Program-made: the position numbers and the translations under genes
Part shown: piece by piece, positions 1,530 through 11,487 of the stretch
How positions within the stretch are numbered: the first letter of the stretch is position 1
Layout of the letters: the number at the start of each line of letters is the position of its first letter
Notes under the pieces: model-generated
What the model was told of the DNA's origin: nothing
Database searches by the model: none
Seen by the model: only the letters and a program-made list of their open reading frames with translations
Origin: Candidatus Jorgensenbacteria bacterium
GTDB lineage: Bacteria; Patescibacteriota; Minisyncoccia; UBA6257; GWB1-50-10
DNA length: 35,582 nt
Reading direction: 5' to 3'
Assembly: GCA_011050075.1 (NCBI GenBank)
Contig: DRGK01000002.1
Span: forward strand, 1-35,582

Positions 1530-2063
1530 ATGAAAAAGGGTTTTACGCTTATTGAATTGCTGATTGTTATTGCAATTTTAGCGGTACTCGCGACGGCGGT
1601 AACGCTTATCTTGAACCCCGCAGAGATGCTTAAGCAGGGGCGGGATGCGACGCGCCTCTCTGATTTAGCGGCAATCCACAGTGCAATTGCGCTCTATCTG
1701 GCTGATGTTTCTAGTGCATCATTTAATTCCACTCTCAATTGTAATGTTGCACTTGCAACCTCGCCTCCCACAGCTTGTTCAGCGGTTACATCGACTGTCG
1801 TGACTGGCGGAGGATGGGTGGATATAAATTTTACTAGTGTATCAGGCGGTTCACCGCTTTCACGGTTACCTCTTGATCCAACAGATGATAATACCCACTA
1901 CTATGGATTTGGTTCCAATACAAGTGGAGAGTACGAGTTAATTACCCAGATGGAGAGTGCGCGGTATGTAAATACTGGCCCTGCTGATAAAGAATCAACC
2001 GACGGCGGAGAGGACTCAGATTTCTATGAAATAGGAAACGATGCTGGATTGGATATATGGTAG
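1530..2063 (+). CDS. Type IV pilin-like protein (pilin 1)
   Basis: A 177-aa class III-signal prepilin. It has a very short basic leader (MKKG), a prepilin peptidase site G|FTLIE with the conserved Glu at +5, and a hydrophobic helix to about residue 28. An amphipathic region (NPAEMLKQGRDATRLSDL) leads into a small Ser/Thr/Gly-rich C-terminal domain with two cysteines (NCNV and TACS). Prepilin peptidase would remove MKKG and the hydrophobic helix would pack into the pilus core. The first 65 or so residues are almost identical to the next gene, while the exposed half differs. It is likely a major or alternate pilin subunit, in the same locus as pilB and pilC. Confidence 0.92.
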   Translation: MKKGFTLIELLIVIAILAVLATAVTLILNPAEMLKQGRDATRLSDLAAIHSAIALYLADVSSASFNSTLNCNVALATSPPTACSAVTSTVVTGGGWVDINFTSVSGGSPLSRLPLDPTDDNTHYYGFGSNTSGEYELITQMESARYVNTGPADKESTDGGEDSDFYEIGNDAGLDIW

Positions 2064-2120: not shown

Positions 2121-2711
2121 ATGAAAAAAGGTTTCACGCTTATTGAACTGTTGATTGTTATTGCAATTTTGGCGGTACTCGCGACGGCGGTAACGCTTGT
2201 TTTAAACCCCGCAGAGCTTATAAAGCAGGGGCGAGATGCGACGCGGTTGTCTGATTTAGCCGCGGTACATAGTGCAATAGCTCTCTATTTAGCTGACGTT
2301 TCAAGTGCAGGTATTGGTGGTGTAAATAATGCTGCATGCTCTGGAGCATTTGCTCGGTGTACCTCAGGTAGCACAGAGAACTTTGTTACTATCAGCAGTT
2401 GTTCGACCAATGCATCAACCACTGTAGATGGCACTGGATGGGTTGCAGTTGACTTTGAAAATATTTCAGGTAATTCACCGCTCTCGCGTCTTCCGATTGA
2501 CCCGAATAATGGTTCTACGAACTGCGGCTCCGGCGGTTATGCATGCCTCTATGCGTACGGTTGTACCGGCACCGAATACGAGCTTAATGCTGCTATGGAA
2601 AGTGAAAGATATAGATATGATGGCACATCCGATGTAGAGAGTAGTGACGGTGGTGATGATATTAACGTCTACGAAATAGGAAACTCTCCTAACTTGACGT
2701 GTTGTGATTAG
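2121..2711 (+). CDS. Type IV pilin-like protein (pilin 2, tandem paralogue)
   Basis: A 196-aa prepilin with the same leader and cleavage site, MKKG|FTLIELL. Its N-terminal 65 residues nearly match pilin 1, also at DNA level. The C-terminal domain is different and richer in cysteine (six between residues 73 and 143, plus a CC pair near the end), which suggests disulfide-stabilised loops. It has its own TATAAT promoter and ends before an intrinsic terminator, so it can be expressed independently of pilin 1. The arrangement suggests gene duplication followed by divergence of the surface-exposed half, with the two forms either alternating or co-assembling. Confidence 0.92.
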   Translation: MKKGFTLIELLIVIAILAVLATAVTLVLNPAELIKQGRDATRLSDLAAVHSAIALYLADVSSAGIGGVNNAACSGAFARCTSGSTENFVTISSCSTNASTTVDGTGWVAVDFENISGNSPLSRLPIDPNNGSTNCGSGGYACLYAYGCTGTEYELNAAMESERYRYDGTSDVESSDGGDDINVYEIGNSPNLTCCD

Positions 2712-2777: not shown

Positions 2778-3341
2778 ATGGTGACAGTATTTTCGTTTAG
2801 TGTTCTATCTATTGTATTTATCGTCCAGTTAGCCAGCTTGAAGAAGCGTTTTAGTTTCAAGCGTGGAGTCCGACTTCTCCTTTTTATTACAGTAGGTTTT
2901 ATACTCGCATATTTTGTGTACCTCATTGTGTTTCAATATATTCTCTGGCGAGATGCTGGTCCGCCTTCAATCTATTTTATTCCTCCATACCAGAGTATGT
3001 GGTATGTGGTTAACTATCACTTCATCCGTTTCGGACTGTACTACCTCATCTCACTCGCTGCAGCGGCAGCGTTTTTTGTTACGGCGCAGAAACTCAATAA
3101 CCGCTTTAACGAACGGTTTTTCGAGCCGGAAGAACCCTACTTGGGAGCGCTCTCTATATTTCTTCTTGGTAACCCTGCGTGGGGATATGCGTGGATATTC
3201 TACATCGTGGCTATGCTTTCTGTTGCTGCCATAGCCACTAGTTACCAATTATTAGTTACGAAAGAAAATCACAGATTTTCTTTGTACTGGCTGTGGCTGC
3301 CAGTGGCAATCTTGACTATAATAGTAATGAGCTTGTTTTAA
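2778..3341 (+). CDS. Four-TM membrane protein of the pilus locus, unknown function
   Basis: A 187-aa protein whose family I do not recognise. Predicted membrane segments lie at about residues 2-20, 36-56, 81-100 and 127-150, with a last one at the C-terminus (about 165-186), so four to five in all. A basic stretch (KKRFSFKRG) follows the first segment, and a Tyr/Pro-rich loop (SIYFIPPYQSMWY) follows the second. There are no catalytic motifs. It begins the transcription unit that continues into pilB, 17 nt downstream, so it may be an inner-membrane accessory of the pilus machine. That role is inferred from position. Confidence 0.6.
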   Translation: MVTVFSFSVLSIVFIVQLASLKKRFSFKRGVRLLLFITVGFILAYFVYLIVFQYILWRDAGPPSIYFIPPYQSMWYVVNYHFIRFGLYYLISLAAAAAFFVTAQKLNNRFNERFFEPEEPYLGALSIFLLGNPAWGYAWIFYIVAMLSVAAIATSYQLLVTKENHRFSLYWLWLPVAILTIIVMSLF

Positions 3342-3358
3342 CCTAAAACCTAAAATCA

Positions 3359-5071
3359 GTGATAAACCTTTCTACAGAACGTCTTAAGCAGATTCTGATT
3401 ACTGCGGGCATTATTGACGAAAAAACGTTCAATACGATTGTTGATGAAGCTAGTCGGCGCAAACAGAATCCAATTGATATCATCATCTCGCGCGGCATTA
3501 TCAACGAGGACTATTTTTATCTCATCTTAGCAAAAGCATTTAATGTTGAGCGTGTTGACCTCGGCGCAACAGTCATTGATGAGCAGGTTCTGCAAGTGAT
3601 TTCAGAGGATATTGCGCGTTCCCGACGTGTGGTAATCTTTGGACGCAATCAGGACGGGTCGTACAATGTTGCGATGGAAAATCCAACAGACCTGGAAACG
3701 ACCAATTTCCTAACCCTGCGTCTCGGTGCGCCCGTGCGACCATTCTTAGTGTCTGATGAGGATCTCAATCGTGGTTACACGCTGTATGGACAGAAACAGG
3801 CACAAGACTTCAAACAGTTGATTGAACAAAGTATTAAAGAATCACTCCGTTCAAAAGCGCGAGGTGCTGAGGAGGCGGCGAAAGATGTACCGATAGTTGC
3901 GCTGGTGGATAATCTGCTGGCATATGCGATTTCTTCACGCGCATCTGATGTGCACTTTGAAATTTTGGATGATGCGGTACTGATACGTTTTCGGATTGAT
4001 GGTATTTTACATGAGATTCTGCGTATGTCGCCTCAAGTCCATTCGTCCGTGATTGCACGTTTAAAAATCCTTTCCGGATTACGTATCGATGAGCACGCAA
4101 AACCGCAGGATGGGCGATTTCGTTATAAAGTTGGTGGGAAACTTATTGACATCCGTGTTTCTATTATCCCTACGTTCTATGGTGAAAAAGTTGAACTCCG
4201 TTTGCTGGATGCAGCACAAAAGCCGCTCGCACTTGAGGAGCTTGGTATGTTTGAAAATACTGCGAAACGTATACGTGACGCGATAGGAAAAAGTTACGGG
4301 ATGGTACTCGTGTGTGGCCCTACCGGTTCCGGAAAGACGACAACGCTGTATTCTATTATGAATATATTGAACCGTCCAGAGGTGAACATTGTTACCATTG
4401 AGAACCCAATTGAGTACGACATGCGGTACGTTAATCAGATTCAGGTGAATGAAATTGCGGGTATTACGTTCTCAAATGGTCTTCGCTCTATTTTGCGCCA
4501 AGACCCAAATATCATTATGGTTGGTGAAATTCGGGACAGTGATACCGCCGGCATTTCTGTGCAGGCCGCACTGACCGGACACCTTGTGCTTTCAAGTTTG
4601 CACACAAATGACGCACCAACTGCCATACCGCGTTTAATGGATATGGGTATTCAGCCGTTTTTGGTCTCAGCCGTTTTAAACGCAATCAGCTCACAGCGAT
4701 TGGTGCGCCATGTTCATATAGACTGCATTGAGTCATATACTCCGAAGAAGGCAGTATATGAAACCATTAATGAGCAGCTTATGGAGTTGGATGTTGATCC
4801 TAAAGCGGTCAAACTTCCTAAAACGTTCTATCGTGGTAAGGGTTGTGATGCGTGTAATCACACGGGGTATGTGGGACGCATTGGTATTTTTGAGGTAATG
4901 GAAATAACCGAGAATATTCGTCAGCTTATCATCAGTCCCAACTTTGATTTAGACACATTACAGCATCTGGCGCGCAAAGAGGGTATGGTTTCCATGTTTG
5001 AGGATGGTTTGCGGAAGGTCGAGTTGGGTATGACGACCGTTGATGAACTATTTCGGGTGATTCGGGAGTAA
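3359..5071 (+). CDS. pilB: Type IV pilus assembly ATPase PilB (GspE/PulE family)
   Basis: A 570-aa cytoplasmic hexameric ATPase that powers pilus extension. An N-terminal MshEN-like region (residues 1-150) is followed by the GspE core: Walker A GPTGSGKT at 320-327, an Asp box, Walker B-like VGEIRDSDTA, and the His box SSLHTNDA. The usual zinc tetracysteine is altered: the second pair CDAC is present, but the first pair reads HIDC, so one ligand may be His. The start is GTG at 3359; no ATG upstream fits and the alignment supports it. pilC begins one base after the stop. No retraction ATPase (PilT) is in the window. Confidence 0.95.
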   Translation: MINLSTERLKQILITAGIIDEKTFNTIVDEASRRKQNPIDIIISRGIINEDYFYLILAKAFNVERVDLGATVIDEQVLQVISEDIARSRRVVIFGRNQDGSYNVAMENPTDLETTNFLTLRLGAPVRPFLVSDEDLNRGYTLYGQKQAQDFKQLIEQSIKESLRSKARGAEEAAKDVPIVALVDNLLAYAISSRASDVHFEILDDAVLIRFRIDGILHEILRMSPQVHSSVIARLKILSGLRIDEHAKPQDGRFRYKVGGKLIDIRVSIIPTFYGEKVELRLLDAAQKPLALEELGMFENTAKRIRDAIGKSYGMVLVCGPTGSGKTTTLYSIMNILNRPEVNIVTIENPIEYDMRYVNQIQVNEIAGITFSNGLRSILRQDPNIIMVGEIRDSDTAGISVQAALTGHLVLSSLHTNDAPTAIPRLMDMGIQPFLVSAVLNAISSQRLVRHVHIDCIESYTPKKAVYETINEQLMELDVDPKAVKLPKTFYRGKGCDACNHTGYVGRIGIFEVMEITENIRQLIISPNFDLDTLQHLARKEGMVSMFEDGLRKVELGMTTVDELFRVIRE

Positions 5072-5072
5072 T

Positions 5073-6284
5073 ATGGCACAGTTTCATTACATTGCATCAC
5101 AACCTGACGGTAGAATTGTTGAGAGTGAACTGGAGGCACAGCAGGTTTCTGATGTACTGCAGTTTCTTACTTCACGCGGCTTAAAACCGATTAGTGTAAA
5201 GCTTGTTGAGCGCGCAAAGGAGGAGCGTAAAACGTTGTTTAGGGGACGTGTGACTATTGCAGACCAGATTTTTCTCTTTCGATACCTCACACTTATGCTG
5301 CAGATAGGAACTAATCTACTGCAGGCTGTTAATATTTTAATTGATGATTTTGATAAGCCGTCTGTCAAATCATTTTTACTTGAGGTACGTTCAAATCTTG
5401 AGCGTGGGCAACCATTCCATTCAACATTTGCAAAATACCCGAAGGTGTTCAGTTCAGTACATATTAATCTCATTAAGGCAGGAGAAGTATCAGGAAACCT
5501 TCAGAATATATGTGACAACATTACACAGTCTCTCCTAAAAGAAAAGGGACTGCGTGACCAGCTTCGCAACGCGCTTATTTATCCAACGATGCTGCTCGGC
5601 ATATCCGTATTTATTTTGATTTTCTTGATTACGTTTGCGTTACCGAAGATTGCCGGCGTATTTTTGGACAGCGGCTTTGAACCCCCTGTCTTTTCAAGAG
5701 TCGTGTTCACGGTTGGGCTCTTCATCGGGAAGATTTGGTTTTGGTTGTTTGGAGGTTTCATTTTACTTGCATTCTTGTTCTTTTATCTATATCGCACATC
5801 GCTATTTTTCAGAAGGTTTCTATGGTCTGTTGTGACGGATATTCCTGTAGTCAGTGACATTATTAAGAAACGTGCGATACAACGGTTTGCGGCAACATTT
5901 TCGTCTCTGGTAAAGGCAGGTATTACCATTACCGGGGCGTTGGAGATTACCGCTGATGCAGCCGGGCACGAGGAAATGAAACAGGCACTACTTCGTATTT
6001 CTCGAGAAGGGATTTCGAAGGGACTGGTACTTGGTGAGGCGTTTCGGCGCGAAACGTTTTTTCCGAAAATGGTGGTCAATCTTATCGCGATTGCGGAGAA
6101 GGCGGGACATGTTGAAAATGTATTGGAGACACTTGCCGACTTTTACATTGGCGAAATTGACAACTCGCTCAAGAGACTGGTATCTCTCTTGGAGCCGATA
6201 CTACTTTTGATCATAGGATTTGTGATTGGTATTATTGCGCTCGCCATTATTGTGCCGATCTATGAACTCACTACGCAGTTTTAG
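5073..6284 (+). CDS. pilC: Type IV pilus platform protein PilC (GspF family)
   Basis: A 403-aa inner-membrane platform protein that couples PilB to pilin insertion. It has two GspF domains (about residues 60-185 and 265-390) with the family patterns FLFRYLTLMLQIG, KAGEVSGNL, and, in the second copy, RFAATFSSLVKAGITI and IAEKAGHVENV. Membrane segments are near 170-190, 218-240 and 375-397. The N-terminal MAQFHYIASQPDGRIVE matches the normal PilC start. The gene sits 1 nt after pilB and 4 nt before the next pseudopilin gene, so the three are one operon. Confidence 0.96.
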   Translation: MAQFHYIASQPDGRIVESELEAQQVSDVLQFLTSRGLKPISVKLVERAKEERKTLFRGRVTIADQIFLFRYLTLMLQIGTNLLQAVNILIDDFDKPSVKSFLLEVRSNLERGQPFHSTFAKYPKVFSSVHINLIKAGEVSGNLQNICDNITQSLLKEKGLRDQLRNALIYPTMLLGISVFILIFLITFALPKIAGVFLDSGFEPPVFSRVVFTVGLFIGKIWFWLFGGFILLAFLFFYLYRTSLFFRRFLWSVVTDIPVVSDIIKKRAIQRFAATFSSLVKAGITITGALEITADAAGHEEMKQALLRISREGISKGLVLGEAFRRETFFPKMVVNLIAIAEKAGHVENVLETLADFYIGEIDNSLKRLVSLLEPILLLIIGFVIGIIALAIIVPIYELTTQF

Positions 6285-6288
6285 GTTC

Positions 6289-7464
6289 ATGACTCGTCAT
6301 TCATCACGGAGCGGGTTCACACTGACAGAGGTTCTTATTGTAGTTGCGATTGGCGTAGTACTGACCTCTTCTGGGTTTCTATCATTGAATTCGTTTCGTA
6401 ACCGGAAAGATGTTGAGTTTTCAATGTTGGAAGTTACCGCGGTGGTGCGTGAGACACGTGAACGTTCAGTAACGCAGAAAGATGGTTTCGGTTGGGGTAT
6501 TCGATTCATCAGCACGAGCACTGGAGATATCTACAAAGTATTTCAGGGAAGTTCGTACGCGAATGGTACGACAACTGCGACACATTCATTTCGCAGGCCG
6601 GTAGAGTTTGGCGAACCAGCCGGTAATCGTATAGTGGATATTCTATTCAACCCCATTAGCGGGAAAGTGAGCACCCGTAAAATTATCACTGTTTCTCCCA
6701 AAGCCTCTCGTTCATACATCGGAGATATTATCGTAAATACACAAGGACTTGTTACACAGCGAATGGAAGATGGTATCGTTGGCTACTGGCACTTTGATGA
6801 AGAAACTAGTACCAGTACGTATGATGCATCGAGTAATGATAATACCGGGACGCTTACGAATGGCCCTACATGGCAGTCTGGTTCGAGTTGTAAAGCTGGG
6901 GGGTGTCTGTATTTTGATGGTGATGATGATTATATTTCTATACCAGATGACAAGTCATTACGGGCCAATACAACAGATCAATTAAGTTTCAGTATGTGGG
7001 TTAAGAGTGATGATTATACTAATGATCAAGCTTTTATTGCCAAAAGACATACAAATAATAATAGCGGGCATTATCTTATTCAAACACAGCTTTCAGGAAA
7101 AATATTGTTTGCTTGGTATACAGGACAATCACCAGCTGGAAGTGCTTATTACCGCACTAACGACGTTGTTCTAACAGCAGGCCAATGGCATCATATTGGA
7201 ATTAGTAAAGTGTGGAGTGATTCTAGTCCCGATTTTCATATTTATGTTGATGGCGTAGAGAAATCATTTACTGCTGTTAACCCCACTAGATTAGCTTCTA
7301 ACTACACAGGAGGTTATGTTCCTTCTTCTATTGGTGCAGCAAGGCGAGCTGAGGGATATGGAGGTAATTATGCGCTTTTCAAAGGTTTCATCGACGAAGT
7401 TCGCATGTATAACGTTGCTCTTTCTTCCAGCACAATCAAAGCACACTATGATGACCTTAAATAA
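6289..7464 (+). CDS. GspH/PilE-like pseudopilin with C-terminal LamG domain
   Basis: The track ORF starts at a TTG inside pilC; I prefer the ATG at 6289, 4 nt after the pilC stop, which gives 391 aa with a proper prepilin leader (MTRHSSRSG|FTLTEV). A hydrophobic helix runs to about residue 32, followed by a pseudopilin domain to about 155. A LamG/concanavalin-like domain fills the rest, from DGIVGYWHFDE to FIDEVRMYNVALS. LamG domains bind glycans or proteins, so this is a candidate adhesive tip or minor pilin. The LamG stretch looks more A/T-rich, with codon use unlike the pilin part, consistent with domain acquisition. The ligand is unknown. Confidence 0.88.
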   Translation: MTRHSSRSGFTLTEVLIVVAIGVVLTSSGFLSLNSFRNRKDVEFSMLEVTAVVRETRERSVTQKDGFGWGIRFISTSTGDIYKVFQGSSYANGTTTATHSFRRPVEFGEPAGNRIVDILFNPISGKVSTRKIITVSPKASRSYIGDIIVNTQGLVTQRMEDGIVGYWHFDEETSTSTYDASSNDNTGTLTNGPTWQSGSSCKAGGCLYFDGDDDYISIPDDKSLRANTTDQLSFSMWVKSDDYTNDQAFIAKRHTNNNSGHYLIQTQLSGKILFAWYTGQSPAGSAYYRTNDVVLTAGQWHHIGISKVWSDSSPDFHIYVDGVEKSFTAVNPTRLASNYTGGYVPSSIGAARRAEGYGGNYALFKGFIDEVRMYNVALSSSTIKAHYDDLK

Positions 7465-8668
7465 AAACGAGACAGGACAATCTCTCATTGAGATTATTAT
7501 CGCTCTGGCAATCGGTGCGCTCCTCATCGGTGCTGCAAGTATGGCGATAATTGTCGTACTGCAGTCAAGCTCTGCGAGTCAGATACAGCAGAGCGCTACG
7601 ATACTTGGACAGGATATTATGGAGAAGACGCGCGCATTTTCGCTCGGCAGCTGGGATGGCTTGTATGGCCTGACGAAAGGCTCAAGCACGCTGTACTATT
7701 TCTATACTACGAGCACGCAGTTTGCTATCTTGCAGGGTAAAGAGGGGATAATTGCGAATGATATCCATGACGGTTTGGTTGGATACTGGAAGCTTGATGA
7801 GGCGAGCAGTACGATTGCCTATGACTACTCTGGAAACGGGAACGATGGGACGCTCGCGGGTGGCGTAACGAGAGCGACATCTACCTGTAAAATTGGCTAC
7901 TGCTTGGATTTTAATGGATCAACTAATTATGTGGATGTTGGTAGTATCAGCTTAAGTAGTCCAATAACTTTTTCTGCATGGATTAATCCATCGGTTCTTG
8001 ATAGTAATGACAACCCGGTGGTTTACAATACTACTTACTTCCAAGTTTGGTCGAATAAAATTCGTTTTGTTATAAATAATGCTGCCGCAACTGCTTATAC
8101 AATCACTTCAGCAGATACGTGGTATCACGTTGTTGGAACCTATGATAAGGATGCAGATCCTTCTGATAACATAAAATTATATGTAGATGGAGTGTTACGG
8201 GACGAATATGGTTGGCCTAACGAAATAGCAGCTGGAAATCTACTTATCGGTGCGTACACTGGACCACAACTTTATTTTGATGGTCTTGTTGATGACGTTC
8301 GTATATACAACCGTGCACTTGACGCTGATGAAGTTAAACATCTCTATAACTCCACGCTTTTCACTCGCTATTTCTACGTTGAGAATGTGAATCGTGATAC
8401 TGGAGGAGATATTGTAACCTCCGGTGGTACTGAGGACCCGACAACACAGAAGGTGACTGCGGTGCTTCAGTGGGACACAAGCCAAGGAACTCAAGAGTTT
8501 ACGTTTTTTGAGTACATGACGAGGTGGCGAAATCGTGTGTTCCACCAGTCCGACTGGTCAGGTGGGAGCGGCCAAGATAGTGTGATAACCGTTCCGAATG
8601 AGAGGTTTGCAAGTTCAAGTGGTGTAGATACAGCAACGCCCGGGCAGTTTAGGATAGAGGGACTTTAA
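7448..8668 (+). CDS. PilV-like pseudopilin with an inserted LamG domain
   Basis: The track ORF begins too early; the ATG at 7448 (or the adjacent 7451), overlapping the previous gene by 17 nt, gives 406 aa. A basic leader (MMTLNKNETG) precedes QSLIEIIIALAIG, an atypical cleavage site with Gln rather than Phe at +1 but with the conserved Glu. The pseudopilin fold is interrupted at about residue 107 by a LamG domain (DGLVGYWKLDE to VDDVRIYNRALD) and resumes near residue 300 with TRYFYVENVNRDTGGD. It is thus a LamG inserted inside a pilin rather than appended to one. It is coupled to the previous LamG pseudopilin, and both probably form a minor-pilin tip complex. Confidence 0.86.
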   Translation: MMTLNKNETGQSLIEIIIALAIGALLIGAASMAIIVVLQSSSASQIQQSATILGQDIMEKTRAFSLGSWDGLYGLTKGSSTLYYFYTTSTQFAILQGKEGIIANDIHDGLVGYWKLDEASSTIAYDYSGNGNDGTLAGGVTRATSTCKIGYCLDFNGSTNYVDVGSISLSSPITFSAWINPSVLDSNDNPVVYNTTYFQVWSNKIRFVINNAAATAYTITSADTWYHVVGTYDKDADPSDNIKLYVDGVLRDEYGWPNEIAAGNLLIGAYTGPQLYFDGLVDDVRIYNRALDADEVKHLYNSTLFTRYFYVENVNRDTGGDIVTSGGTEDPTTQKVTAVLQWDTSQGTQEFTFFEYMTRWRNRVFHQSDWSGGSGQDSVITVPNERFASSSGVDTATPGQFRIEGL

Positions 8669-8691: not shown

Positions 8692-9138
8692 ATGGATAAT
8701 TCACCAGAGACGTATCAAGAACCTGTTCGCAAAGATTTTTTACCCTCACAGGAAGAGCTTGCAGAAGTGGGTAAGCACGTGGAGCGTGTAATGAATGAGT
8801 ACGAGCACGGAGAAGGAAAACCAATTGAGAAACATGAAGTTGTCAAACAGTCCTTACAACAGATGGTTGTAGAGGATATGCCAAACACAGAGCAGAGCAG
8901 TAATGTTTTGACACCAGATGTAACTGAATCACGCCTTCCTGTATATATGGCAGGTGATCAATCAAGTGATGAGATTAAGGCCACCGTCATGTCTTTACTG
9001 GAAACCACATTAAAGAAGGGGTTACTGCGTGGATTGCGGGCGTCACGAAAATATCCACCATTCGTTCAGGATGCGTTCCATGACGCACTGATTGATAAGT
9101 TACTTCCAGAACTTGAGCGGCGAGGATTTTTGAAATAG
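8692..9138 (+). CDS. Acidic soluble protein of unknown function
   Basis: A 148-aa protein I do not recognise. The N-terminal half (to about residue 95) is hydrophilic, Glu-rich and probably helical or flexible (EELAEVGKHVERVMNEYEHGEG). The C-terminal half (about 96-148) looks like a compact helical domain (IKATVMSLLETTLKKGLL, then FVQDAFHDALIDKLLPELERRG). There is no signal peptide, TM segment or enzyme motif. It sits 3 nt upstream of the VirD4/HerA-like ATPase gene, in the same direction and with its own promoter, so the two probably work together, perhaps as a partner or regulator of the ATPase. Confidence 0.6.
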   Translation: MDNSPETYQEPVRKDFLPSQEELAEVGKHVERVMNEYEHGEGKPIEKHEVVKQSLQQMVVEDMPNTEQSSNVLTPDVTESRLPVYMAGDQSSDEIKATVMSLLETTLKKGLLRGLRASRKYPPFVQDAFHDALIDKLLPELERRGFLK

Positions 9139-9141
9139 TAC

Positions 9142-11487
9142 ATGCCAGTTTGGGTCCATATTACACTTGCAGGTATAGTAGGTATCGTAGGTATCGTGGG
9201 TATTTTTGTGACGCTGCGCGCGCGCAGACGCGCAGCGGTTGAGCGGTTGCGTACCAAGTTGTTCCTATTACGATTCCCACGGGGGAATCAAGAGGGAACC
9301 GACGTTATGCATGAGATAGGTCGCACTGAACAGTTATTTAGTGCGGTAGCGGGATTTCATCAACCAATTGTGTTTGAGGCGGCGGTGCCACATGTCGGCG
9401 AGGAGATTTTGTTTTATGCAGCGGTGCCATCACATATCGGTGATGCGTTTGTTCGTCAGGTGCACGCTATTTGGAGCGATGCATCAGTTGAGGAAGTTGA
9501 TGACTACAATATCTTTCATCATTCCGGTATTACGTTGGGCGGATGGGTGAAATCGAAGGAGGAGGCCATCATCCCCATTGCGACGTACCGCTATTCTGAG
9601 TCTGATACATTTCAACCTATTTTAGGCGGTCTGGCGAAGGTTGATGAGATGGGAGAGGGTGGTGCGGTGCAGGTGATACTGCGTCCGGCAGCTGCGTCTC
9701 ATAAGAGAGAGGTACAAAAATCACTCCAGTTGTTGCGCAAAGGCTGGAATTTGAAAGATTTACAGAAGCGCACGACCATATCTAATGTGTTTTCTGCACT
9801 TTCTGGTAAAGCACCTACGGAAGAGGAACGGCAGCGTGTAGATGAGAATACTATTCGTGCGGTGGAAGAAAAGGCGCGCAAACCGCTCCTGGAAGTTAAC
9901 GTGCGCCTCGTGGCTTCTGCCCCAAGCCAAGTGCAGGCAGAGTCAATTTTTAGTGGGCTTGTGTCTGCGTTCGCTCAGTTTAGTAGTCCGGACCGCAATG
10001 AGCTGTCGGTGGTAAAGGCGCGCAGTATTAAGAAATTTGCGCACCGATTCTCATTCCGTGAGTTCAGCGGGACACAGGCAATGGTGCTTAATACTGAGGA
10101 GGTAGCGAGTATTTTTCACTTTCCAACGCCATTTACTGATATGCCGCGCGTTAAATACTTAAAAGCAAAACAACTGGCTCCGCCGTCTGTGCTGCCAGAC
10201 GAAGGAACGCTCATTGGAGAAAGTGTGTATCGCGGTGAACGTCGATCAATTTACATCACTGATAATGACAGGCGTCGGCACGTGTATGCCATAGGTCAAA
10301 CCGGGACTGGTAAATCAACACTACTCATCAATATCGTGATGAGTGATATTGAGCGCGGCAAGGGTGTTGCGGTCATTGATCCTCATGGGGATCTGGTGCA
10401 GCACATTGCGAGCCTTATTCCAAAGCAGCGTCAAGATGATGTTATTATTTTCGACCCATCATCGCTCGAAAAACCACTCGGACTGAATATGTTGGAGTAC
10501 GACCTCAATCGACCGGAGGAAAAAACGTTCGTAGTGAATGAACTTATGGGTATTCTTGATAAGTTGTACGATTTAAAAACAACAGGTGGCCCTATGTTTG
10601 AGCAATATATGCGTAATGCCCTTCTTTTGCTTATGGATGATGCGGCACACGAAGTGCCGACGTTAATGGAGGTACCGCGCATTTTTACCGATGCAGATTA
10701 TCGTAACCAAAAACTCGCACGTATTACTAATCCATCGGTTATCGATTTTTGGGAAAAGGAAGCAGTTAAAGCTGGCGGCGAAGCATCACTGCAGAATATT
10801 ACACCGTATATTACATCAAAATTTAGCAGTTTCATCGCAAATGATTATATGCGCGTCATTATTGGTCAGGAGCGCTCGGCGTTCAATTTCCGAGAAATAA
10901 TGGACGAGGGCAAGATATTACTCGTGAACCTTTCAAAGGGTCGTATTGGGGACTTGAATGCGAACTTGTTGGGGATGATCATTGTTGGCAAGTTCTTAAT
11001 GGCAGCACTGGGTCGTGCTGACATACCAGAGAGCGAGCGTCGTGATTTTAATGTGGTTATTGATGAATTTCAGAACTTTACGACTGACTCCATTGCCACC
11101 ATCTTATCAGAAGCACGGAAGTATCGATTAAGTGTGACCTTGGCGCACCAGTTTATTGCCCAACTTAATGATAAAACGCGCGACGCGGTATTTGGTAATG
11201 TAGGCTCGTTCATAGCGTTTCGTGTTGGTGTTCAGGACGCCGAGTTCTTGGTAAAACAGTTTGAACCGTTTCTTGCCGTTGAAGATCTTGTGAACGTAGA
11301 TAACTATAATGCGTACGTGAAGCTGCTTGTGCGCGGAGAAACGGCGCGTCCGTTTAATATACAAACGTTTGTTACCGCACCGTACAATGAAGCAGAAGCG
11401 AGTGCGTTGTATGCTCGTTCAATGAGTCGATATGGTGTTCCAAAAGAAGAGGTTGAGCGTACTATTCGCCATCGTCTCCAACAGTAA
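9142..11487 (+). CDS. Membrane-anchored VirD4/HerA-like DNA-translocase ATPase
   Basis: A 781-aa protein with one N-terminal TM segment (about residues 5-26, containing GIVGIVGIVGIF), a long cytoplasmic N-domain, then a RecA-like motor: Walker A GQTGTGKST at 385-393, DPHGDLV, Walker B VVIDEFQNF at 638-646, and the sensor-like AHQFIAQL. This matches the type IV secretion coupling-protein/TraG-DUF87 group. Possible jobs are DNA transfer or uptake, or chromosome handling. No relaxase, VirB or integrase genes are nearby, so a conjugative element is not supported. Proximity to the pilus genes allows a role in DNA import, but that is speculation. Confidence 0.82.
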   Translation: MPVWVHITLAGIVGIVGIVGIFVTLRARRRAAVERLRTKLFLLRFPRGNQEGTDVMHEIGRTEQLFSAVAGFHQPIVFEAAVPHVGEEILFYAAVPSHIGDAFVRQVHAIWSDASVEEVDDYNIFHHSGITLGGWVKSKEEAIIPIATYRYSESDTFQPILGGLAKVDEMGEGGAVQVILRPAAASHKREVQKSLQLLRKGWNLKDLQKRTTISNVFSALSGKAPTEEERQRVDENTIRAVEEKARKPLLEVNVRLVASAPSQVQAESIFSGLVSAFAQFSSPDRNELSVVKARSIKKFAHRFSFREFSGTQAMVLNTEEVASIFHFPTPFTDMPRVKYLKAKQLAPPSVLPDEGTLIGESVYRGERRSIYITDNDRRRHVYAIGQTGTGKSTLLINIVMSDIERGKGVAVIDPHGDLVQHIASLIPKQRQDDVIIFDPSSLEKPLGLNMLEYDLNRPEEKTFVVNELMGILDKLYDLKTTGGPMFEQYMRNALLLLMDDAAHEVPTLMEVPRIFTDADYRNQKLARITNPSVIDFWEKEAVKAGGEASLQNITPYITSKFSSFIANDYMRVIIGQERSAFNFREIMDEGKILLVNLSKGRIGDLNANLLGMIIVGKFLMAALGRADIPESERRDFNVVIDEFQNFTTDSIATILSEARKYRLSVTLAHQFIAQLNDKTRDAVFGNVGSFIAFRVGVQDAEFLVKQFEPFLAVEDLVNVDNYNAYVKLLVRGETARPFNIQTFVTAPYNEAEASALYARSMSRYGVPKEEVERTIRHRLQQ

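What the first reader, a model, noticed from the sequence alone, without database searches (positions are those of the whole stretch)
6769..8355. Two adjacent pseudopilins display LamG domains, one inserted within the pilin fold
The first has LamG as a C-terminal extension; the second has it spliced into the middle, with the pseudopilin sequence resuming afterwards at TRYFYVENVNRDTGG. The domain entries DGIVGYWHFDE and DGLVGYWKLDE are related at DNA level, and the LamG cores look more A/T-rich than the pilin parts. A lectin-like pilus tip would suit attachment of an episymbiont to a host cell.
Basis: partly seen in the sequence, partly recalled or inferred. Interest (0 to 1): 0.65.

Follow-up and report, generated by a model that had tools for sequence, protein, structure and literature searches.

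The report
Pilus-tip lectins with swappable cores
Two neighbouring pilus proteins of an ultrasmall bacterium each carry a sugar-binding-type (lectin-like) domain, and across related species the middle of that domain is repeatedly replaced by unrelated sequence while its ends and the pilus part stay the same, which looks like a way to change what the pilus sticks to.

Summary
P1 (6289-7464) is a type IV minor pilin with a C-terminal LamG. P2 (7448-8668) is a minor pilin whose beta-sheet is interrupted by a LamG; the pilin fold resumes after it (Pfam, AlphaFold, Foldseek). Relatives with an uninterrupted P2 are common in the order, so the insert is not ancestral in all homologues.

The LamG splits into an entry (~55 aa), a core (~120-150 aa) and an exit (~25 aa). 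Entry and exit track the pilin; the core does not. Median core identity stays at the background of about 0.27 whether scaffolds are 30% or 96% identical. In 33 of 36 close pairs the core is replaced (identity 0.38 or less); in 3 it is retained (0.78 or more). Some cores are shared across families or between P1 and P2. In the window both cores are the coding stretches with the lowest third-position GC.

Best reading: a pilus-tip lectin pair whose cores are exchanged as cassettes, probably by homologous recombination with imported DNA. Host-cell adhesion is plausible but untested. The parts have precedents (modular pilins, S. sanguinis PilC, ComZ/GspK insertions, PilV shufflon): a new variant of a known kind.

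The parts
6289..7464 (+). P1: type IV minor pilin with C-terminal LamG, 391 aa (GspH/FimU-like N-terminus)
   Evidence: Pfam N_methyl + Laminin_G_3; weak sub-cut-off GspH hit; AlphaFold
6289..6759 (+). P1 pilin moiety, residues 1-157 (helix 12-62, sheet 69-149)
6760..6927 (+). P1 LamG entry segment (DGIVGYWHFDE ... CKAGGCLYFDG); GC3 0.36
6928..7386 (+). P1 LamG core, the segment that is replaced between relatives; GC3 0.22
7387..7461 (+). P1 LamG exit segment (FIDEVRMYNVAL...)
7448..8668 (+). P2: type IV minor pilin with LamG inserted in the pilin sheet, 406 aa (PilV-like N-terminus); start overlaps the end of P1 by 17 bp
7448..7765 (+). P2 pilin N-part, residues 1-106 (helix 13-67, strands 83-102)
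7766..7918 (+). P2 LamG entry segment (DGLVGYWKLDE ... CKIGYCLDFNG); GC3 0.53
7919..8281 (+). P2 LamG core, the segment that is replaced between relatives; GC3 0.25
8282..8356 (+). P2 LamG exit segment (GLVDDVRIYNRALDADEV...)
8357..8665 (+). P2 pilin C-part, residues 304-406 (strands 304-358), resuming after the insert
3359..5071 (+). PilB-type assembly ATPase (T2SSE + MshEN)
   Evidence: Pfam E 9e-121; best NCBIfam PilB/GspE, under equivalog cut-offs
5073..6284 (+). PilC/GspF-type platform protein
   Evidence: Pfam T2SSF E 7e-48
1530..2063 (+). type IV pilin of the same cluster (possible major pilin)
   Evidence: N_methyl E 1e-8
2121..2711 (+). type IV pilin paralogue of 1530-2063
   Evidence: N_methyl E 1e-8

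Best explanation
P1 and P2 are a co-encoded pair of type IV minor pilins that display LamG (ConA-like lectin) domains on one of the cell's pili, most likely at the tip. Shown here: P1 carries the domain after the pilin fold and P2 carries it at a fixed hinge between two strands of the pilin sheet. The hinge is a reusable port that is empty in most families of the order, holds LamG in others, and holds an RCC1 propeller in one genome. The domain's ends (entry and exit) stay with the pilin, while the central core is replaced as a block by unrelated LamG cores, by my count at least a dozen times among close relatives, sometimes with cores also seen in other families or in the other pilin. Inferred: replacement occurs by homologous recombination in the conserved ends, fed by DNA imported through competence (the genome encodes ComEC) rather than by an inversion or retroelement system. 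Inferred and least certain: the core forms the ligand-facing side of the lectin, so a swap changes which surface glycan, perhaps which host cell, the pilus binds.
For: Architecture. Foldseek: AbnA domain 4, an arabinanase domain solved in complex (5hon), is the top hit for P2 and second for P1; S. sanguinis PilC (7oa7) is fifth for P1. Empty sites; insert-state changes at least 12 by parsimony, at least 6 forced by starred branches, on the scaffold tree. Core replacement: median core identity is 0.26-0.30 in every scaffold-identity bin; G025/G028 have scaffold 0.96, entry 0.85, core 0.26, exit 0.72 with no blastn match between DNA cores, while the same genomes' P1 LamG cores are 0.94 identical. 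Edges are sharp at DNA level, 0.88 to about 0.38 and back. Of 36 close pairs, 33 have core at most 0.38, 3 at least 0.78, none between. Cross-family sharing: G004 (f1) - G082 (f5) core 0.64, scaffold 0.35; P1 of G179 and P2 of G171 share a core at 0.54. In the window both cores have the lowest GC3 of all coding windows. ComEC present; no reverse transcriptase found, one tyrosine recombinase on another contig.
Against: No ligand or tip location is shown. AU tests on whole LamG domains did not reject clades that follow the scaffold; those domains include the scaffold-tracking ends, and the core-only comparison is by identity, not by a tree test. The comparators are draft assemblies, nearly all of those with a title labelled as metagenome-assembled. 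The window has no close relative, so replacement in this genome itself rests on composition and analogy. The donor of most cores is not found in the sample.
Confidence: 0.72

Rival explanations
1. Very fast point divergence: the cores are inherited with the pilin but change quickly under diversifying selection, with no exchange.
For: Ligand-facing parts of adhesins often evolve fast; the AU tests do not reject vertical descent of whole domains.
Against: Close pairs are bimodal (0.22-0.38 or 0.78-0.99) with no intermediates. Where the core is kept it changes about as slowly as the pilin (G028/G029 0.99 vs 0.98; P1 G025/G028 0.94 vs 0.88). Some cores are closer across families than between sister species.
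Confidence: 0.12
2. The variable tip serves phage or predator evasion rather than choice of a partner cell: type IV pili are common phage receptors, and swapping the exposed core removes the site.
For: It predicts the same hypervariation; rests on general knowledge of pilus-targeting phages. Not exclusive with adhesion.
Against: The cores keep a lectin fold, and many relatives carry no LamG at all. No phage of these organisms was examined.
Confidence: 0.25
3. The LamGs bind environmental polysaccharides or the cell's own envelope, not another cell.
For: Nearest solved folds include the AbnA arabinanase domain (5hon).
Against: Core turnover is more than a fixed polysaccharide would need; cultivated Patescibacteria are described as obligate episymbionts, and in one of them pili contribute to host binding (PMC12206443).
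Confidence: 0.3
4. Assembly or binning artefact: cores of different strains were wrongly joined into metagenome contigs.
For: The genomes compared are draft assemblies, mostly from metagenomes.
Confidence: 0.04

Closest known systems
PilC of Streptococcus sanguinis type IV pili (PMC9934059)
   Same: Minor pilin with a ConA-like lectin module, proposed pilus-tip adhesin; P1's model matches its structure (7oa7).
   Different: Module is C-terminal behind an Ig-like domain; no sequence match here; its partner PilB carries vWA rather than a second lectin; core exchange not described in the passages read.
Modular pilins as a class (PMC8179133)
   Same: Functional module grafted on a pilin; PF13385 is among the frequent modules and several examples are Patescibacteria.
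   Different: The definition given there is N-terminal pilin plus linker plus module; P2 has the module inside the fold, and no adjacent LamG pair or cassette exchange is described in the passages read.
ComZ (beta-solenoid) and GspK (alpha-domain) insertions (PMC8179133)
   Different: Inserted domain is not a lectin and is not described as exchanged.
PilV shufflon of IncI plasmids (PMC9045228)
   Same: Constant minor-pilin part with exchangeable adhesin end that sets recipient specificity.
   Different: Shufflon uses a dedicated recombinase, sfx sites and stored cassettes at the C-terminus; none of these is seen here.
PilX1/PilX2 of Nanosynbacter lyticus TM7x (PMC12206443)
   Same: Patescibacterial minor pilins with added jelly-roll or RCC1 propeller; PilX2 is needed for full host binding.
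   Different: Modules are C-terminal; different lineage; exchange not described in the passages read.

Membership tests
Type IV pilin | Class III prepilin motif with Glu5, curated N_methyl score | tested here: met
   P1 G-FTLTE, P2 G-QSLIE; 23.6 and 25.9 bits vs 21.2
Type IV pilin | Long N-terminal helix and beta-sheet head | tested here: met
   AlphaFold helices 12-62 and 13-67 plus sheet
Type IV pilin | Assembled in a filament | not testable with these tools
   only the PilB-PilC neighbourhood supports it
Laminin_G_3 (PF13385) | Curated Pfam cut-off | tested here: met
   75.8 and 94.5 bits vs 27.6
ConA-like lectin fold | Beta-sandwich matching solved lectin-like domains | tested here: met
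   5hon E 2e-9 (P2), 3e-10 (P1)
ConA-like lectin fold | Sugar binding | not testable with these tools
   no assay
Modular pilin (PMC8179133 sense) | N-terminal pilin followed by a linked module, P1 | tested here: met
   P1 model
Modular pilin (PMC8179133 sense) | N-terminal pilin followed by a linked module, P2 | tested here: not met
   module lies inside the pilin sheet; closer to the ComZ/GspK layout
TafC fimbrial protein (NF052521) | Equivalog cut-off 410 bits | tested here: not met
   57 and 41 bits
Shufflon-type variable pilin | Inverted repeats, stored cassettes and a dedicated recombinase | tested here: not met
   no inverted repeats of 14 nt or more, only two LamG in the genome, one tyrosine recombinase, on another contig
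Diversity-generating retroelement target | Reverse transcriptase in the genome | tested here: not met
   no RVT_1 match; assembly 91% complete

The most novel reading that the evidence does not exclude
A lineage-wide variable host-recognition system: two adjacent minor pilins hold lectin domains with conserved docking ends, and their cores are drawn from a shared pool that moves between species and families, so that an episymbiont changes partner by recombining one segment.
Probability: 0.33. Interest if true: 0.82.

Novelty: new variant of a known kind. Interest (0 to 1): 0.66.

Why it matters
How uncultivated Patescibacteria choose and hold their partners is largely unknown. This names two genes, and within them one exchangeable segment of 120-150 residues, as a candidate for specificity, and gives a way to compare allele with co-occurring partner across metagenomes. 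It also adds a natural case of a lectin domain inserted at a reusable port in a pilin.

Tried and rejected
Recent duplication of one LamG within the genome: rejected; P1 and P2 cores of the same genome are no more alike (median 0.28) than those of different genomes (0.27). Insert ancestral in all homologues: rejected. Strict P1-P2 coupling: 33 genomes have both, 34 neither, 11 P2 only, 1 P1 only, but too few independent contrasts for significance. Whole-domain AU tests to prove exchange: not decisive, so the argument rests on segment-wise identity. Shufflon and retroelement: no support. Phage origin of the window's P2 LamG: one weak partial hit in a Synechococcus phage. Literature searches for LamG with pilin in Patescibacteria or Parcubacteria found one paper (on Nanohaloarchaeota, not opened) and none. 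Clostridial neurotoxin entries among fold hits share only the lectin jelly roll; no toxin reading is intended.

Full report
What is there. The window lies in a 526-kb, 18-contig genome. A type IV pilus cluster runs from 1530: two pilins, an unknown membrane protein, PilB, PilC, then P1 (6289-7464) and P2 (7448-8668), which overlap by 17 bp. Both have a class III prepilin motif and one Laminin_G_3 domain over the curated cut-offs. No other LamG_3 was found in the genome. The genome has four PilB-type ATPases and a further shorter T2SSE match next to one of them, probably PilT, so this pilus is one of several.

Structure. P2 was modelled from 33 sequences (pLDDT 81.1, pTM 0.75). The pilin helix is 13-67 and pilin strands lie at 83-102 and again at 304-358; the LamG sandwich occupies 110-287 between them, mostly at pLDDT above 85. 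The C-terminal 45 residues are poorly predicted. P1 (23 sequences, pLDDT 85.2, pTM 0.83) has a complete pilin to 149 and the LamG after it. Foldseek against the PDB gives AbnA domain 4 as the top hit for P2 and the second for P1; the S. sanguinis minor pilin PilC (7oa7, E 1.4e-8) is fifth for P1. The many clostridial neurotoxin and sialidase entries share only this jelly-roll fold.

Empty sites. Relatives without the insert read straight through the hinge, for example L033 'TGTQSV-SVGGVNYALFFSIENV'. A profile of uninterrupted P2s found P2 scaffolds in 184 of 244 genomes of the order; in most families the match is contiguous. Among loci read in full, family f1 has 29 LamG-bearing and 7 empty P2 scaffolds (some are second copies), f5 has 9 and 12, f23 has none with LamG and 9 empty, f16 has 7 with LamG. 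On the scaffold tree, insert state changes at least 12 times, at least 6 forced by starred branches; G036 (empty) and G037 (LamG) are sisters at 100. Gain cannot be told from loss without a root. Inserts begin at the same model position (about 103/105 of 211) in f1, f2, f5, f7, f8 and f16. In G216 the same place holds an RCC1 propeller.

Core exchange. Sister species with very similar P2 pilins have unrelated LamG middles. Dividing the domain into entry (first ~55 aa), core and exit (last 25 aa), the median core identity is 0.26-0.30 in every bin of scaffold identity, 0.27 in most, from below 0.3 to above 0.9, while entry and exit rise with the scaffold. For G025/G028 scaffold is 0.96, entry 0.85, core 0.26, exit 0.72; blastn finds no match between the DNA cores; DNA identity falls from about 0.88 to about 0.38 and returns to 0.88. 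The P1 LamG core of the same two genomes is 0.94 identical, which argues against a general high mutation rate. Other replaced pairs are G021/G024, G015/G016, G004/G005, G032/G033, G049/G050 (family f2) in P2, and G015/G017, G026/G028, G179/G180 in P1. Of 36 pairs with scaffold identity of 0.6 or more, 33 cores are at 0.22-0.38 and 3 at 0.78-0.99. Cores can be closer across families than between sister species: G004 (f1) and G082 (f5) 0.64 with scaffold 0.35; G015 (f1) and G171 (f16) 0.55. The P1 core of G179 resembles the P2 core of G171 at 0.54. For P1 of G024/G032 (core 0.82, scaffold 0.34) the pilin rather than the core may be what was replaced. The AU test on whole domains did not reject scaffold-like grouping; I did not run a core-only tree test.

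The window's own cores. Third-position GC is 0.22 (P1 core) and 0.25 (P2 core), against 0.40 in the P1 pilin, 0.56 and 0.48 in the two P2 pilin parts and 0.53 in the P2 entry. Among 574 other 121-codon windows of coding sequence the minimum is 0.289. Across f1 the domain is only slightly lower in GC3 than its pilin (about 0.05), so the bias is not inherent in the fold; recent acquisition of both cores is the simplest reading, by inference.

Mechanism. No inverted repeats, no store of extra LamG cassettes and no reverse transcriptase were found; the one tyrosine recombinase lies on another contig. ComEC is encoded, and competence is demonstrated in the patescibacterium TM7x (PMC12206443). Homologous recombination within the conserved entry and exit is therefore my preferred route; it is inferred. 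That the core is the ligand-facing part follows from the general layout of LamG/ConA folds, where N- and C-terminal strands lie together (own knowledge); it was not measured on the model.

Comparison. Lectin-bearing minor pilins (S. sanguinis PilC), modular pilins with PF13385 including patescibacterial ones, and domain insertions into the pilin sheet (ComZ, GspK) are known (PMC9934059, PMC8179133). Swapping of a pilin's adhesive end is known from the PilV shufflon (PMC9045228). The combination found here, two adjacent pilins with conserved domain ends and replaced cores, one at an internal port, I did not find described in the searches made; the held library omits most subscription papers.

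Noticed in passing
L225 (G216:C3:38000-45200), P2 frame 3223-6870: P2 of another family carries an RCC1 beta-propeller (about 897 aa insert) at the same hinge; TM7x PilX2, needed for full host binding, also has an RCC1 propeller (PMC12206443).
   Followed up: partly
L250, L192, L205: Other modules on the same two pilins: NHL propeller at the end of P2 (L250), Fib_succ_major on P1 (L192), sulfatase-modifying-factor-like domain after a LamG-bearing P2 (L205).
   Followed up: partly
L193 (G048) and L221 (G177): P2 inserts about twice the usual size (413 and 448 aa), apparently two LamG domains in tandem at the hinge.
   Followed up: no
L214 (G123:C1:442500-448500): P2 with a 399-aa insert at or near the hinge and no Pfam match.
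   Followed up: no
window 8692-9138 and 9142-11487: Directly downstream of P2: a 148-aa protein without Pfam match and a VirD4/TraG-like ATPase.
   Followed up: no
G000 C17, C18, C12: Three further PilB-type ATPases and about ten further N_methyl matches elsewhere in this half-megabase genome, suggesting several pilus or pilus-like systems.
   Followed up: partly
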